This document shows positions 23,683-57,420 of a stretch of 64,000 nt of DNA, piece by piece. The stretch is from positions 144,471 to 208,470 of the forward strand of contig JAHBVV010000004.1 in assembly GCA_019637335.1 (NCBI GenBank), read 5' to 3'. Source of the stretch: Candidatus Hydrogenedentota bacterium (GTDB lineage Bacteria > Hydrogenedentota > Hydrogenedentia > Hydrogenedentales > JAEUWI01). Within the stretch, counting starts at the first letter, position 1, and each line of letters starts with the position of its first letter. Under the pieces are notes generated by a model. That model was given only the letters and a program-made list of their open reading frames with translations. It was not told the origin of the DNA and searched no databases. Position numbers and translations under genes: made by a program.

Positions 23683-23723
23683 GGGGAACAATCCGCCAGA
23701 CTACCGGTGCTATATGCCAGACT
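23683..23723. promoter_or_regulatory. 41-bp conserved box, copy 1 (direct repeats 21 bp apart)
   Basis: This differs at only one base from 25285-25325. It contains GCCAGACT at 23695-23702 and again at 23716-23723, exactly 21 bp (two helical turns) apart, preceded by GGGGAACAATCC. It lies upstream of the secreted protein gene starting at 23611. Similarity between the two copies stops sharply at both ends, as expected for a protein-binding site. Confidence 0.55.
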
Positions 23724-23863
23724 ATCATGTCGGGCAAGTTACCAATAGAACGGATAGTCGACCAAAACGCTTTCAATCGTCACTTGCGGAGGCCATTTCA
23801 CCAGTATCAGCACGCAGGATCTCGTCCACAGGTTTGTGGATGGGTTTATATGGACCCAGAACG

Positions 23864-25017
23864 CTACCTTGATCGGGCTTCGAACTCCACGGGATGGAGG
23901 GACCGAACATGCTTGTAGTCTAGAATCTTCCTGTCCGCGGTCACCAGGGGGCATGCGAGATCGATAGCGGCGGCAACAAGCATTCGATCCGCCGGATCGC
24001 GGTGTATCTCGCCGGGCAAGCGACTTGCGTTTACGGCTACCGACCGACTCAATGGAATCAGGTAACATTTTAGCCGCCTGAAGCAGCAACGCGTGTAAAC
24101 AGCACGAACGGACCGTTAATAACGAGGAAGCTCGGCAAAGGATCGCGGACATTCGTGTCCGCGGCAGGACGAGCGCAAGACATATCGTGCTCGATGTGTA
24201 TGTAAAGAGGCGCGGGTTCACAATGCTTTCCGCTCCCGGGGACGCCGGAATTCTATTCCAAACCACGTACGTCACTTTATTTCCCGGGCTCACTTTGCCG
24301 CGGACAGGAATGTCCACGATCCTGCTATTCACGCCCGTCTTGACGGAGATTCGCCTACAAAACGGTGGGTGCTTCATTCCGCGAAAGAATTACGAATCTT
24401 CGAACCCGGTCAATAGTCTCTCTTATTCGTGTGAATTTGTGTTCATTCGTGGTTGAAAATCTGTAACACTTTAGCGGAATGAAGTGCGGAACAGGATGTG
24501 ATCTTACTATTGGAGCCGTTTTGCAGGAGCGCCAGTGGTTCGCCTGCATTGCACCGAAGGTGCAAGAACACGTTGCCGGAGTCCTCCGAGGACACGCGGC
24601 TTCTGATGCAACGGTAGCGTTTCCAGAACGCTGTATTGCGCCGGGGGCGCAATCTGCCGGCGGGCCGCCGGCGCTCCATAGTTGCACGTAGCCTTTATTC
24701 AGCAAGTCGCTATGGTTTGGCCACTGTACTTCGTTCGGCTAAAGAATTAGGAAAATCTTATTTGCTTCAGACGGCTAAACTGTTACGGTATTAGTTGCAC
24801 GCCGGGATACTGCAAGGCCTGGTCGAGCCATTCGTCCAAGGGGCAGGGCAGAGTCAACCGTGTTTCCCGCGTGGAGCATGGCAACTTCCCAACAGGAAAT
24901 GATATGAACCCCAATGCCCGTGTCCTGTGCAGCATCCAAGGCCCCGATCGCCCCACGTGAAAGTTGGCTATCGCCTTGGACCCACCAGACCCACACGTGC
25001 GTGTCGAGCAATATCAC
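23864..25017 (-). pseudogene. VapC-type PIN-domain toxin gene, split by an insertion and frameshifted
   Basis: The 5' part (25017 to 24787) encodes 'ILLDTHVWVWWVQGD...SCWEVAML'. It shifts frame by one base near 24861-24868 and continues as 'LDEWLDQALQYPGVQLIP'. An insertion occupies 24062-24786. The 3' part (24061 to 23864) resumes with 'LSRSVAVNASRLPGEIHRDP' and 'PLVTADRKILDYKHVRSLHP'. Deleting the insertion plus one copy of the 8-bp target repeat restores one continuous PIN domain with all four acidic residues (LLDTH, CWEVA, DPADR, TADRK). The GTG start overlaps the antitoxin stop. VapC toxins are RNases; this one must be inactive. Confidence 0.88.
24062..24786. mobile_element. Non-autonomous IS66-like insertion (MITE-type) within vapC
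   Basis: The 725-bp insertion starts with GTAACATTTTAGCCGCC and ends, read from the other side, with GTAACAGTTTAGCCGTC. These are the end sequences of the IS66-family element at 55896. The flanks GGAATCAG (24054-24061) and GGTATTAG (24787-24794) match at 6 of 8 bases, a decayed 8-bp target duplication. Inside are an inverted repeat (about 24140-24165 with 24296-24322), an extra IS66-like end at 24463 and a chain of hairpins near 24555-24680. No transposase or other gene is present. Confidence 0.8.
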
Positions 25018-25217
25018 CGAACCGAGTCCCAGGCATCGACCTCTTCGGCGGGCTCAAATGGGGCATCATAGCGATAGGCCGTCCCCCGCAGCGCACGCGA
25101 CGAATTTCCTTCCAAGACGGTCGGAAGTAATTCAATCCGCACCCGTGTGCCATTCTCGAGTTTCGCGGGCACATCCAGCACAATGACTCCGTTTTCCACG
25201 TGTCCGTCGTATTGCAT
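25014..25217 (-). CDS. Antitoxin-like protein of the vapBC-type locus
   Basis: A 67-residue protein beginning 'MQYDGHVENGVIVLDVPAKLEN', which looks like the small beta-rich antitoxins (DUF104/AF2212-like) encoded before PIN toxins. GGAGGAG lies 5 nt before the ATG at 25217. Its stop overlaps the toxin GTG start, the normal layout for such operons. It is intact while the partner toxin is broken, so it may persist only as a remnant or as an anti-addiction antitoxin. Confidence 0.75.
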   Translation of the reverse strand: MQYDGHVENGVIVLDVPAKLENGTRVRIELLPTVLEGNSSRALRGTAYRYDAPFEPAEEVDAWDSVR

Positions 25218-25284
25218 GATTCTCCTCCGAGTCTTACAAGGCAATTCTAGCACATGACTTGTTCGATATGGAGACGTGTAAAAC

Positions 25285-25325
25285 GGGGAACAATCCGCCA
25301 GACTACCGGCGCTATATGCCAGACT
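25285..25325. promoter_or_regulatory. 41-bp conserved box, copy 2
   Basis: This copy carries GCCAGACT at 25297-25304 and 25318-25325, again 21 bp apart, preceded by GGGGAACAATCC. It lies 169 bp before the GH5 start codon. The other copy is at 23683-23723. Confidence 0.55.
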
Positions 25326-25493
25326 TTGATGACGGATTCGGGATGATAGCTTTGGAAATAGGTTTGCCAGCCCTGCCCATTGAATGAGACAAGGCCGCCG
25401 TTGCTATGATTCTGAGGCGCCGCGCAGCTCACGCCGCCTGGCGTAACGTTTGTGTTTCGCCCCTCGGGGCCGTTCAAACAGGAGTAGACCCTC

Positions 25494-26970: not shown

Positions 26971-27849
26971 CTACGCGGGATCCGACCGGGGTGGCTGGTG
27001 CGCGGCGACCATCTGCTCCAGCGCGGCCCATCCCTGGCGTTGTTGGGGGGTCAGGGTTGCCCCGCTACCCGCGCGCAGCCGGTGGTCGACGGCGCGCAGC
27101 CAGCGGCGGGTGGCCCGGGGCAACGCAACGCGTTCATTGACGACCAGCCCGGTCACCTGCTGTTGCTGGTGGCGCCGCCGGATGCGGAGCTTCTTCTTCT
27201 GGTGCAGTTTGTAGCCGCCCTCCTCCGCCACAATCCGCTTGGTGTGGTAGAGGATAGCCTGGATGTCGTTGTGGCGGTCCTCCGCGAGCGAAAAGGTCAG
27301 ATCGTCGGCGTAGCGGGTATACACCGCGCCATGCTTCCGCGCGAGGCCGTCCAGGCGCGCGTCGAGTCGGTAATTCACGGCGTTGCTGAGCGCGGGGCTC
27401 GTCGGCGCGCCCTGGGGGAGGCCGCCTTCGTGGGTGCAGATCCGGGCCAGCAATTTGGCCGCCGCGCGGTTCCAGCCCATCCGCTGGAGATAGCGCCGGA
27501 CGCGCTTTGCATCGGTACTGCCGAAGAAATCGCGGATGTCCATCCGGATGACGGCGGCGCGTCCCGCGTGGCAGGCCGCGTTGCTGGCGATCGAATAGCC
27601 CGGGCGAAATCCGGTGACGCACGGGTGCACCGGGAGACGCTTGAGGAGGCGCTGATAGATCTGGCGCTGCGCGGCCTTCAGTTCGGGATCGGGCGCGCTG
27701 ATCGTTCGGGTCCCGCCGCCGCGCTTGGGCAGGGTAAAGGTGTGGTAGGCGACCTTCACCGCCTCCAGATCGGCGAGGGGCAGGCCAATGCGTTCGGCCA
27801 GTTCCCCGGGGGCGCGCCCGCCGCCGGTCAGCCAGGACCAGAATGCCAT
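26971..27849 (-). CDS. Retron-type reverse transcriptase
   Basis: A 292-residue reverse transcriptase. The active site is YADD (residues 180-183), with the first catalytic Asp at D104 ('IRMDIRDFF'). The 'GLPQGAPTSPALSN' block is at 143-156. Two retron-specific regions are present: NAxxH (N90-H94, 'NAACH') and VTG (V232-G234, 'VTGLVVN'). There is no maturase or fused effector domain. ATG 27849 with GGGAG about 10 nt upstream is preferred over 27912, because the longer frame would translate the ncRNA terminator. The ncRNA lies directly upstream on the same strand. Retron RTs copy part of the ncRNA into a branched RNA-DNA hybrid (msDNA), usually in phage defence. Confidence 0.93.
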   Translation of the reverse strand: MAFWSWLTGGGRAPGELAERIGLPLADLEAVKVAYHTFTLPKRGGGTRTISAPDPELKAAQRQIYQRLLKRLPVHPCVTGFRPGYSIASNAACHAGRAAVIRMDIRDFFGSTDAKRVRRYLQRMGWNRAAAKLLARICTHEGGLPQGAPTSPALSNAVNYRLDARLDGLARKHGAVYTRYADDLTFSLAEDRHNDIQAILYHTKRIVAEEGGYKLHQKKKLRIRRRHQQQQVTGLVVNERVALPRATRRWLRAVDHRLRAGSGATLTPQQRQGWAALEQMVAAHQPPRSDPA

Positions 27850-27878
27850 GTCGCGAGAATCTCCCGTCCGAAAGCCGT

Positions 27879-27910
27879 GAAAAGGCGGCGCCGGCCGAAG
27901 CCGGCGCCGC
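27879..27910 (-). terminator. Strong intrinsic terminator between retron ncRNA and RT gene
   Basis: On the minus strand an 11-bp perfect stem (GCGGCGCCGGC and its complement) with a TTCG tetraloop is followed by CTTTTC. It begins at the base where the a2 segment of the ncRNA ends and lies 30 bp before the RT start codon. Confidence 0.88.
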
Positions 27911-28022
27911 ACTTGCCTTGCTTACCATGCGATGGTAACACGGACTCTTTCATCGGGCCAGGTGGCCCGGTTGACGAAACATCAACCCACGCCCTGCATT
28001 TGGGCGCCGCCAAGGCAAGCGC
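27909..28022 (-). ncRNA. Predicted retron msr-msd ncRNA
   Basis: About 114 nt. The 5' end GCGCTTGCCTTG (28022-28011) pairs with CAAGGCAAGTGC-type sequence at 27920-27909, giving a 12-bp a1/a2 helix with one G-U pair. Between them lie four hairpins: CGCCC/GGGCG; GGTTGA/TCAACC with loop TGTTTCG; CGGGCCA/TGGCCCG; and TTACCA/TGGTAA with loop TCGCA. The TGTTTCG loop is like the GTTTCG-loop hairpin of the E. coli Ec86 msr, from memory. The position immediately before the RT, the closing helix and a promoter whose start point falls at the a1 end make this a strong candidate. The RNA is short, so the msDNA would be short too. Confidence 0.8.
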
Positions 28023-28073: not shown

Positions 28074-28451
28074 TCACTGGGTCGCCCCGAGCTGCTGTAG
28101 CACTTGCGCGACTTCTGTCTTACCAAGCTCCTGGGCGTATTTCAGCGGTGTCCTGCGCGAGGTGTCCGTCATCTCGATAAATGCGCCCTGCTGCACCATC
28201 AGCACCACAATGTCGACGTTTCCGCCCTTTACGGCGGCGTGCAACGGCGTCATGCCCTCGTGGTTGATCAGGTTGTGGTCCCAGTCACCCGCCGCGATGA
28301 AGTATTGCACGGCTTCCAGGTCGCCGGCGGCGGCGGCCTGATAGATATCGTCCATTGGCTGGTAAACCGCCGGAGCGCTTTTTTCGTTCAGATTATTGCA
28401 CCCCGCGGCCACGGCGGCCAGTACGATTACCCACGTCCAACGCGTTTTCAT
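28074..28451 (-). CDS. Ankyrin-repeat lipoprotein
   Basis: A 125-residue secreted protein. The start 'MKTRWTWVIVLAAVAAGC' is a lipoprotein signal with Cys18 as the lipidated residue. The remainder holds about three ankyrin repeats ('DDIYQAAAAGDLEAVQYFIAAG', 'MTPLHAAVKGGNVDIVVLMV', 'RTPLKYAQELGKTEVAQVL'). Ankyrin repeats mediate protein contacts. GGAGG lies 5 nt before the ATG. It is directly upstream of the retron on the same strand, but its export signal makes a role as retron effector unlikely. Confidence 0.85.
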   Translation of the reverse strand: MKTRWTWVIVLAAVAAGCNNLNEKSAPAVYQPMDDIYQAAAAGDLEAVQYFIAAGDWDHNLINHEGMTPLHAAVKGGNVDIVVLMVQQGAFIEMTDTSRRTPLKYAQELGKTEVAQVLQQLGATQ

Positions 28452-28514
28452 TGCGCCTCCAGTTCCCTGAGCCAAGCTCGGCCCGGCATCCCCGCGGGGA
28501 GCCGCACTTCGGTG

Positions 28515-32936: not shown

Positions 32937-34158
32937 GGTTCACACTCCCATCCCCCGGGAAAAACTACGCCGGCGCGTTCGCCTTCACGAAAAGGCTACG
33001 GGCGCGGTGCAATCGCATTTCAACTTCGTAACCGTTTAGCCGTCTGAAGCAAAGAAGTTTTTCAACCACGAATGAACACGAATTCACACGAATAAGAGAG
33101 ACTATTGACCGGGTTCGAAGACTCAAACGGAACGATAGCAGGTCGGCCTTTGATTTCTTGAAGAGCAGGGCTTTCCTACAGATTTGCACAGGGCAGCCTC
33201 TGGCCGCAACCAAAGAAATGATCACCACGAAGGGCGCGAAGGTCACGAAGAGAGGAAGTTTTTGAAGGGGGGCATGCCAATGAGTTTGGAATGGAGCCGA
33301 GTCGGGATGCGGGGTCGATGCGCGGGAGGGATTGGATCGGGGGCCACAAAGAGCACAGAGAACACAAAAGATTTGATTGAACCGCGAATGAACGCGAATG
33401 GACTCAGCGCGGCCTTTGGCCGCGATCTGAAGTTTTGACCACGGATTACACGGATTGCACGGATAGAGAAGGAGTTTGATGAGTTCAACCGCGATTGGTC
33501 ACGAATGAAGGAAGTATCGTATCGCCTTGGGAGTCCGGGGCCGCGTCTTGTGGCGTTGATGGGCCGTTCGAAGGCGCCGCACGCGCTGCGTCAGCCTGGA
33601 AGGCTAACCCACGTTGGCCGCCCATGTAGACACTGGGGTTATCTTCGTTCGGCCAGACATTAATGATCGGTCCAAGTACGCCAAGACCGGATGAACCACT
33701 TTATGCGATCACCGCGCTTTTGTATCGCCCCCGGTGCCCATTGGATTCCATTGCCGGGGACGCCGCGATTCTATTTCAGATCAGCCGTGCCCGTTGAAAG
33801 TCAACGCAGGCGTTGCCGCAGGCAAGAATGCCCGCGATCCCTTAGCCGTGCTATCTCGTAGATTACCGAAGCGCCTGGAATCATTCCTGCTCATTGCTTC
33901 ATACGGCTAACGTATTACGAATTACTCAACTTCCAGCACGCGGCGAGCGCCATACGAACCTGCAATGTGAGGAAGGGCGCGTGCTGGGGCTACCCCGGCC
34001 GGGACGTACCCCCGCTCTGGCGCGCTTGCCGATTGGATGGCGGGGATATGGTTGACGCCGGGGTGCGCATTCCAGGAGCGGGCGTGTGTGCGCGGGTACG
34101 TCCCTTGTCCGCGGCGGCTTTTGCCGGGGGGAACGACCGCGATCCTGGTTGGCGGCGC
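32937..34158. other. Intergenic region holding a MITE-type insertion and repeat DNA
   Basis: 1.2 kb without genes. Positions 33028-33925 are an IS66-like non-autonomous element (listed separately). The rest is short flanking sequence; 33934-34158 has GC-rich dyads only. Open frames antisense to the next gene extend into it and look spurious. Confidence 0.6.
33028..33925. mobile_element. Non-autonomous IS66-like insertion with perfect 8-bp target duplication
   Basis: The 898-bp element is flanked by TCAACTTC at 33020-33027 and again at 33926-33933. The left end is GTAACCGTTTAGCCGTC. The right end, read inward, is GTAATTCGTAATACGTTAGC, which carries a 7-base doubling of the outer part. Inside are dispersed repeat motifs such as 'CACGAATGAACACGAATTC' (also present inverted near 24430), 'GATCACCACGAAGGGC' (also at 55808) and 'ACCACGGATTACACGG'. 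No gene is seen. Confidence 0.82.
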
Positions 34159-35790: not shown

Positions 35791-36163
35791 ATTATTCTTT
35801 AGCCGTCTGAAGAAGTCACCCTCGTCGCACCCGACGGCGGCGGCTCTCGGTGATCGAACACCGTCATCCCCACGAAAGGGGCTGTCGGCTTACTTAACTC
35901 ACCCTACACTATGGAAGGAATGAGCAGATCCGTCATCCCCGCGAACGCGGGGATCCAGCGACGCGAACGCACAAACCTCCGAATTCCACTGGATTCCCGC
36001 CTTCGCGGGAATGACGCCATAGGGCGTTAGCACAGAATTGCAGAAAATGCGCTCACCGCACACGTTAAATCGACATCCCCTTCGCGGAAATGACGAATAC
36101 GGCCATTGTAAATAAGGCATCTCATATCGGCGAACGCCTTGCTTCAGACGGATAAAGTATATC
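35791..36163. mobile_element. Short IS66-like non-autonomous element carrying a PAKAGIQ-type repeat
   Basis: The 373-bp element is flanked by GGAATGCG at 35783-35790 and at 36164-36171, a perfect 8-bp target duplication. The ends share CTTTAGCCGTCTGAAG (left) and CTTTATCCGTCTGAAG (right, inverted). Its interior holds several copies of the widespread hairpin repeat 'GTCATTCCCGC'/'GCGGGAATGAC' (for example 35929-36013), which translates as 'VIPAKAGIQ' and 'LDPRVRGDD'. The rest of the 35695-36216 gap has no gene. Confidence 0.85.
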
Positions 36164-55691: not shown

Positions 55692-55895
55692 GTATGCGGG
55701 GGCAGGGTAATCGCATTTACATTTCGTGACAGTTTAGCCGTCGGAAGCGAAGAGGTTTTTCAACCACGAACGAACACGGGGCAGCCCCTGGCCGCGACCA
55801 AAGAAATGATCACCACGAAGGGCACTGGGCAGCCTTGGGCCGCAACCAAGGCATTGATCACCACGAAGGGCACGAAGGGCACGAAGAAAAAAAAA
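55692..55895. repeat. Repeat DNA left of the IS, with a solo IS66-like end at 55726
   Basis: GTGACAGTTTAGCCGTCGGAAG at 55726, split here as GTGACAGTTTAGCC plus GTCGGAAG, is a second IS66-like end in the same direction as the IS left end. It is followed by the repeat motif 'GATCACCACGAAGGGC' three times, also found in the insertion at 33028. It may be the remnant of an older element. Confidence 0.7.
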
Positions 55896-57420
55896 GTAAC
55901 ACTTTAGCCGTCTGAAGCATCTATATGTAGTTTTGTCGCGTGTTGTACGCACAGCATGTGGTATGCGATAGTGTGCGCATGGCGAACTCGCTGTTGCAAG
56001 ATATTCCCCTTGGGGCCTCGCTGACGGAAGAGGCGGCGCGTGCGATTTTCCTTCGCGGCGAAGAATCTGTAATCTTCGCGCTGCTTGCGCAGGCGAAGAT
56101 GCTGGCCGAGCACCAGGCCGCCCTGCCCGCGATCGCCCACAACACGCCCTCGACGCCTTCGGGCGCGAAGCCGGTGTACACCAAGCCCCAGTCCTCCGGT
56201 CGCGGCAAGAAGAAGCCCGGTCGCAAAGCGGGCCACGCGGGCAGCCGGCGACCGGCCCCGGAGGAGATCGATCGCAGCGAGGCGCACCGCGCGGCCTGCT
56301 GCCCGGATTGCGGCGGCTCCCTCAACCGCTGCGAGGAAACGCGGACGCGCTACACCGAGGATATCCCCGAAACCAGGCCGGAAGTGACCGAGCATGTCAT
56401 CCACCGGGACTGGTGTCCCAGGTGCAAGAAGAAGGTTGAAGCCCCGGTAAGCGCGGCCCTGCCGGGCGCCACCGTGGGCAATCGCGCGCTGGTGCTGAGC
56501 GCCTGGCTCCATTACTGCCTTGGCAACTCGCTCGCGCAGATCGCGGACGTTTTCAACTTCCACCTTTACTTCAAGGTCACCCCCGGGGGCCTGTTGCACA
56601 TGTGGCGGCGCCTGGCGGAAATACTCCTGCCCTGGCACGAGGAAATCCAGCGCGAAGCGCTCAGGTCCTCGGTGCTGAACGCCGACGAAACCGGCTGGCG
56701 CGTGGATGGAAAGACCCACTGGCTCTGGTGCTTCGCCAGCAGCGACCTGAGCTATTTTCTGATCGACCAGTCGCGCGGTCAGCCCGCGTTGAAGAAGTTT
56801 TTCATAGAGGAGTTCGCGGGCACGCTGGTGGCCGACTTCTGGGGGCCCTACAACGCCGTGGCGTGCGCCCATGCGCAGAAGTGTCTGGTGCACCTGCTGC
56901 GCGATCTCGAACACGTCGAGCGCTACAAGTCGCCCGGCGAGGACTGGGCGGCCTTCGCTAAAAAGCTGCGGCGCCTGCTCGGAGACGCCATCCGCCTTTC
57001 CCGGCGCGAGGATGAACACACGCCCGAAGCCTACGCTTCGCGACGCGCGCTGCTATCCAAGCGCCTCGATGAACTCAACGCCATGCCCTGGGAAGACGCG
57101 CAGGCGCGGCGCCTTGTCAAACGCCTCAAACGCCACTGCGACGAACTCTTCACCTTTCTGGACCGGCCCGGCGTCCCCTTCGAAAACAACCTCGCCGAGC
57201 GCTCCATTCGCCCCGCCGTCCTCCTGCGCAAGAACAGCTACGGAAACCGAAGCGGTACGGGCGCCGACATACAGGCCCTGCTCATGAGCGTCTTCTTCAC
57301 CCTCAAAAAGCGCGGGCACAATCCCGTCGACGCCATCAGCCATGCCCTCAAACAATTCCTCGAGACGGGCTCGCTGCCACCGCTACCCGCAAAGTCCACT
57401 TCAGTCCGCTAAAGTGTTAC
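55896..57420 (+). mobile_element. IS66-family insertion sequence (single-ORF type)
   Basis: The 1525-bp element has inverted ends GTAACACTTTAGCCGTCTGA (left) and GTAACACTTTAGCGGACTGA (right), matching at 18 of 20 positions. It holds one transposase gene and no IS66 TnpA/TnpB helper ORFs, like the ISBst12 subgroup. The flanking octamers (AAAAAAAA left, AAAGTGTC right) do not match, so the original target duplication is lost or an adjacent deletion has occurred. Its right end supplies the stop codon of the neighbouring TcmP gene. Confidence 0.9.
55979..57412 (+). CDS. IS66 family transposase
   Basis: A 477-residue DDE transposase. The N-terminal zinc-finger region has 'CCPDCGGSL' and 'WCPRCKKK'. 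The catalytic triad is in 'LNADETGWRVDG' (Asp), 'LVADFWGPYNA' (Asp) and 'FENNLAERSIRP' (Glu). The tail 'SYGNRSGTGADIQALLMSV' is the IS66 C-terminal signature. All motifs are intact, so the enzyme may be active. ATG 55979 is preferred; an earlier in-frame start at 55940 lies close to the left end. The stop codon is inside the right inverted repeat. GC content is like the host's, unlike the genes to its right. Confidence 0.93.
   Translation: MANSLLQDIPLGASLTEEAARAIFLRGEESVIFALLAQAKMLAEHQAALPAIAHNTPSTPSGAKPVYTKPQSSGRGKKKPGRKAGHAGSRRPAPEEIDRSEAHRAACCPDCGGSLNRCEETRTRYTEDIPETRPEVTEHVIHRDWCPRCKKKVEAPVSAALPGATVGNRALVLSAWLHYCLGNSLAQIADVFNFHLYFKVTPGGLLHMWRRLAEILLPWHEEIQREALRSSVLNADETGWRVDGKTHWLWCFASSDLSYFLIDQSRGQPALKKFFIEEFAGTLVADFWGPYNAVACAHAQKCLVHLLRDLEHVERYKSPGEDWAAFAKKLRRLLGDAIRLSRREDEHTPEAYASRRALLSKRLDELNAMPWEDAQARRLVKRLKRHCDELFTFLDRPGVPFENNLAERSIRPAVLLRKNSYGNRSGTGADIQALLMSVFFTLKKRGHNPVDAISHALKQFLETGSLPPLPAKSTSVR

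What the first reader, a model, noticed from the sequence alone, without database searches (positions are those of the whole stretch)
23864..25017. Toxin gene split by a mobile element and rebuildable to the codon
Removing 24062-24786 with one 8-bp repeat joins 'YPGVQLIP' to 'LSRSVAVNASRLPGEIHRDP' in frame and restores a full PIN domain. A separate one-base shift near 24861-24868 also hits the gene. The antitoxin next to it is intact. This is a dated fossil of a toxin-antitoxin module, with two independent inactivating events.
Basis: seen in the sequence. Interest (0 to 1): 0.62.

Follow-up and report, generated by a model that had tools for sequence, protein, structure and literature searches.

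The report
Toxin gene broken by nested mini-transposons
A bacterial growth-arrest toxin gene next to its intact antidote gene has been knocked out by a small non-coding jumping element, which itself carries a second one, and by a separate frameshift; a sister species still has the whole gene, so this is a clear but ordinary gene death.

Summary
In a Candidatus Hydrogenedentota genome, a vapBC-type toxin-antitoxin pair (minus strand) has an open antitoxin and a PIN toxin cut by a 725-bp insert (24062-24786). A congener carries the same toxin whole (136 aa), and its DNA aligns to both sides of the insert with the target present once. The reading frame also has a frameshift around 24861-24868 that the congener lacks. 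Outer A is 429 bp (8-bp target repeat, 6/8 conserved). Inner B is 288 bp (target repeat GAAAATCT, 8/8). Both are multi-copy families here, with GTAACA-type ends and 8-bp duplications. Those ends match a single-ORF IS66-family transposon in the same window (55896-57420). The termini occur 186 times in this genome, 6 in one congener and 0 in five other family members, so the family expanded in this lineage. "Dated fossil" is too strong: only B-after-A is ordered, and low dN/dS suggests recent death. Insertional inactivation by MITEs is well known. This is a well-documented new instance of a known kind.

The parts
25014..25217 (-). antitoxin gene (vapB position), 67 aa from ATG (79 aa from the upstream GTG at 25253); open
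   Evidence: ORF; 78% aa identity and dN/dS 0.20 to congener G003; overlaps the toxin start as in G003 and other relatives
24862..25017 (-). toxin (PIN) N-terminal piece, original frame, 52 codons
   Evidence: PIN profile 1-43, E 0.0011; 77% identical to G003 VapC
24789..24860 (-). toxin middle piece, read in the shifted frame (24 codons); the frameshift lies between this and the N piece
   Evidence: 83% identical to G003 residues after the shift
24787..24794 (.). 8-bp target duplication GGTATTAG, copy on the high-coordinate side of outer MITE
   Evidence: target present once in G003
24062..24786 (.). outer MITE A (429 bp without inner element and its duplication), IS66-type ends GTAACA...
   Evidence: inverted repeats 24062-24085/24763-24786; multi-copy in own genome; a related long copy L015 with 8/8 target duplication
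24463..24750 (.). inner MITE B (288 bp; family consensus 289 bp) inserted in A
   Evidence: eight further copies aligned, most with 8/8 target duplications
24455..24462 (.). 8-bp target duplication GAAAATCT of inner MITE B, low-coordinate side
   Evidence: sequence
24751..24758 (.). 8-bp target duplication GAAAATCT of inner MITE B, high-coordinate side
   Evidence: sequence
24054..24061 (.). 8-bp target duplication GGAATCAG, copy on the low-coordinate side of outer MITE
23864..24052 (-). toxin (PIN) C-terminal piece with HRDPADRM and TADRKIL motifs
   Evidence: PIN profile 80-117, E 0.0016; 81% identical to G003 VapC
55896..57420 (+). IS66-family element, 1525 bp, single transposase ORF 55940-57412, ends match the MITE ends: candidate driver
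   Evidence: PF03050 E 4e-38 and zf-IS66; end matches with 0 and 2 mismatches to GTAACACTTTAGCCGTCTGAAG; sequence

Best explanation
A type II toxin-antitoxin module of the VapBC (PIN toxin) kind lost its toxin. An IS66-type MITE (A) inserted in the toxin gene with an 8-bp target duplication. A second IS66-type MITE (B) later inserted inside A. A frameshift also broke the toxin frame upstream of the insertion. The antitoxin gene stayed open. The MITEs carry no transposase and were most likely moved in trans by an IS66-family transposase such as the one at 55896-57420, whose ends match. Shown: insertion, nesting, target duplications, intact congener gene, frameshift in the assembly, end match. 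Inferred: trans-mobilisation, loss of toxicity, the order of frameshift and insertion (unknown).
For: Intact 136-aa toxin in congener G003. Its DNA 1110-1278 and 1272-1739 aligns to the two sides of the insert, overlapping by about the target length, so the target is single there. Inverted repeats and target duplications at both nest levels. Family copies elsewhere with 8-bp duplications. IS66 transposase with the same ends. 186 termini in the own genome, 6 in G003, 0 in five other family members, with 0 in the reversed-pattern control. 8-bp duplications and GTAA ends are reported for IS66 (PMC11946415, PMC3281130).
Against: The outer target duplication is only 6/8 identical. The vapBC locus is not in the same gene neighbourhood in G003, so the empty site is shown at gene level and not at chromosomal locus level. 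Target duplication of the candidate IS66 element itself is not recognisable (3/8), so it may not be the element that moved them.
Confidence: 0.95

Rival explanations
1. The frameshift is a sequencing or assembly error and the MITE insertion is the only true lesion.
For: Single-base event in a metagenome-type assembly; no reads could be checked.
Against: Large neighbouring genes are open (GH5, GH30, reverse transcriptase, IS66 transposase), so indel errors are not rife here.
Confidence: 0.15
2. The fragments are functional short proteins and not a dead gene (for example a truncated PIN half).
For: Both fragments keep the conserved PIN residues, with low dN/dS against G003 (0.07-0.12) and no excess of window-only changes.
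Against: All close homologues are full length; the low dN/dS mostly reflects the time before the insertion; neither fragment holds the whole set of PIN acidic residues; the C piece has no start and ribosome site of its own at the right place in relatives.
Confidence: 0.03
3. The antitoxin is retained under selection as an orphan that protects against incoming related toxins (anti-addiction).
For: Antitoxin open with dN/dS 0.20; congener G005 also has an open antitoxin beside a toxin with an in-frame TAG.
Against: The toxin pieces look equally conserved, so the module may simply have died too recently for the antitoxin to decay; one pairwise dN/dS cannot separate the two.
Confidence: 0.15

Closest known systems
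VapBC type II toxin-antitoxin modules (PIN-domain toxin, Pfam PF01850)
   Same: Small antitoxin gene overlapping the start of a PIN-domain toxin gene of about 130-136 aa; PIN profile matched by the intact congener protein (E 7e-13)
   Different: Here the toxin is interrupted and frameshifted; the antitoxin matches no Pfam or NCBIfam model
IS66-family insertion sequences, single-transposase (ISBst12-like) type
   Same: DDE_Tnp_IS66 transposase and zf-IS66 domain, GTAA-beginning ends, 8-bp target duplications on the related MITEs
   Different: Only one transposase gene, no tnpA/tnpB in the 1.5-kb element; subgroup assignment is from general knowledge and was not tested
Bacterial MITEs that inactivate genes (review PMC10969869: for example mcy, hns, avrA, hopX1, pyrE)
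   Same: Short non-coding multi-copy elements with inverted repeats and target duplications inside a coding gene
   Different: IS66-type ends (the review does not mention IS66), and one MITE nested in another

Membership tests
VapBC toxin-antitoxin module | PIN-domain toxin | tested here: met
   Intact congener homologue PF01850 E 7e-13; both window pieces match complementary parts of PF01850
VapBC toxin-antitoxin module | Small antitoxin gene directly upstream, overlapping | tested here: met
   25014-25217 overlaps the toxin start at 25017; same arrangement in G003, G005 and other relatives
VapBC toxin-antitoxin module | Antitoxin of a known VapB family | tested here: inconclusive
   No Pfam or NCBIfam match up to E 1
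VapBC toxin-antitoxin module | Toxin is a ribonuclease neutralised by the antitoxin | not testable with these tools
   needs an assay
IS66-type MITE | No transposase gene, length below about 600 bp | tested here: met
   A 429 bp, B 288 bp; only short chance ORFs inside
IS66-type MITE | Terminal inverted repeats shared with an IS66-family element | tested here: met
   Ends within 1-3 mismatches of the IS66 end GTAACACTTTAGCCGTCTGAAG on most termini (right end of B: 6 mismatches)
IS66-type MITE | 8-bp target duplication | tested here: met
   8/8 for inner B and most other copies, 6/8 for outer A
IS66-type MITE | Multi-copy in genome | tested here: met
   119 matching segments to the insert; 186 termini
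IS66-type MITE | Mobilised in trans by IS66 transposase | not testable with these tools
   needs a transposition assay

The most novel reading that the evidence does not exclude
IS66-type MITEs have undergone a lineage-specific burst in this Hydrogenedentota species (about 186 termini against 6 or none in relatives). They have a modular build that lets elements nest and be mobilised as larger composites, and toxin genes of addiction modules are favoured casualties while antitoxins persist.
Probability: 0.15. Interest if true: 0.45.

Novelty: new member of a known kind. Interest (0 to 1): 0.22.

Why it matters
It is a clean case of a toxin-antitoxin module losing its toxin while the antitoxin remains, in a poorly studied phylum. 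It also documents IS66-type MITE families with 8-bp duplications that a review of bacterial MITEs does not mention. For annotation it explains two orphan PIN fragments as one dead gene.

Tried and rejected
Rfam found nothing real in the region (one sub-threshold Drosophila scaRNA match). A chromosomal empty site for the whole vapBC module was sought with both flanking genes; no congener has them. The 51-nt direct repeats on either side of the module were tested as a dispersed repeat: only these two copies exist in the genome, none in G003 or G005 vapBC loci, so their origin stays open. The A-core (24062-24393) as the unit that inserted in the toxin was rejected: its flanks do not match (2/8), whereas the full 725-bp span gives 6/8 and the congener alignment. 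No PDB relative of the toxin by sequence. No paper found describing IS66-derived MITEs in this phylum. A rebuilt toxin protein was not made; pieces were compared apart.

Full report
What is there. On the minus strand of window 23864-25253 lie a small antitoxin gene and, overlapping its end, a PIN-domain toxin gene in pieces. The N piece matches PIN profile positions 1-43 and the C piece 80-117. Between them sits 24062-24786, bounded by 24-nt inverted repeats (92% complementary) and by 8-bp flanks GGAATCAG and GGTATTAG (6 of 8 identical). The frame claim was checked by arithmetic only: the two coding frames lie 904 bases apart, and 904 - 733 = 171 = 57 codons. The flanks were not joined.

The intact gene exists elsewhere. 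A congener (G003) encodes the toxin in one 136-aa frame directly after its antitoxin. Its DNA aligns to window 23892-24060 and 24787-25256 as adjacent stretches overlapping by 7 bases, so the target is single there. Identity per piece is 77%, 83% and 81%; antitoxin 78%. Homologues of similar length are found in many phyla and those read through are whole; the named relatives place the window in Candidatus Hydrogenedentota.

The frameshift. The opening frame runs to about 24862 and the following protein sequence is found in the next frame from about 24860, while G003 reads through. It is a lesion independent of the insert. Whether it came before or after cannot be told. Reads were not available, so error is not fully excluded, though large neighbouring genes are open.

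The insert is two nested MITEs. Searching the own genome with the insert gives two sets of copies: positions about 1-332 and about 402-683. The second (B) is an independent 289-bp family with near-perfect 8-bp target duplications in seven of eight other copies inspected. In the window B runs 24463-24750 with GAAAATCT on both sides (24455-24462 and 24751-24758). Taking B and one duplication away leaves a 429-bp element A. A related long A element elsewhere (L015, 602 bp) has an 8/8 duplication AATTCCAT. B therefore came after A. Divergence from family consensus is 5.7% for the A core and 7.4% for B in small copy sets; these do not give ages.

Likely driver. In the same window, 55896-57420 holds a 1.5-kb element with a single IS66-family transposase (PF03050 E 4e-38; zf-IS66). 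Its ends are GTAACACTTTAGCCGTCTGAAG (0 mismatches) and a 2-mismatch copy. IS66 elements are described with GTAA-beginning ends and 8-bp duplications (PMC11946415; ISPpa5a and ISPpa7 with 8-bp in PMC3281130). The only other IS66-like genes in this genome are partial or lack these ends close by, apart from L030, which carries two MITEs of the type. Trans-mobilisation is inferred. The terminal sequence with up to 2 mismatches occurs 186 times here, 6 times in G003 and 0 times in five other family members, with no hits for the reversed control. The expansion is thus specific to this lineage and largely later than its split from G003.

How old is the death. dN/dS between window and G003 is 0.07-0.12 for toxin pieces and 0.20 for the antitoxin (synonymous sites near saturation, so rough). 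Window-only and G003-only amino-acid changes are about equal. Apart from the frameshift the pieces carry no other stop. The toxin has thus spent most of its history under selection and died recently. This argues against a long-decayed fossil, and means the intact antitoxin is no evidence in itself for retained function. In congener G005 the homologous toxin has an in-frame TAG beside an open antitoxin, possibly a second, independent toxin loss.

What it is like and whether it is new. It works like, and by the tested features is, a VapBC-type module with an insertionally inactivated toxin; the antitoxin family is unassigned. Gene inactivation by MITEs is established (PMC10969869). The nested arrangement and the IS66 kinship are details worth recording. 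Overall: a real, well-supported, ordinary event.

Noticed in passing
window 23683-23733 and 25285-25335: 51-nt direct repeats (92% identical) flank the toxin-antitoxin module and occur nowhere else in the genome; might mark how the module was inserted, or be paired regulatory sequence.
   Followed up: partly
window 26971-27912 (-): Reverse transcriptase of retron-like kind (best PADLOC model RT_XIII, E 8e-86), with an ankyrin-like ORF at 28074-28475.
   Followed up: no
window 35791-36163: Another IS66-type MITE, 373 bp, with perfect 8-bp duplication GGAATGCG.
   Followed up: partly
window 33028-33918: Pair of IS66-type ends facing each other without matching 8-bp flanks; possibly a decayed or composite element.
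   Followed up: no
window 55726-55896: A further IS66-type end 170 bp left of the IS66 element, followed by TTTTTCAACCACGAA-like sequence also seen next to the right end of MITE A and at 33051; suggests modular or composite elements.
   Followed up: no
G000 C21:41813-42405: A MITE B copy with a roughly 51-bp internal unit repeated in tandem several times, like the minisatellite-in-MITE of Porphyromonas gingivalis (PMC4596501, title and abstract only).
   Followed up: no
L047 1082-1561 (-), congener G005: Homologous toxin with an in-frame TAG and an open antitoxin: a possible independent toxin loss.
   Followed up: partly
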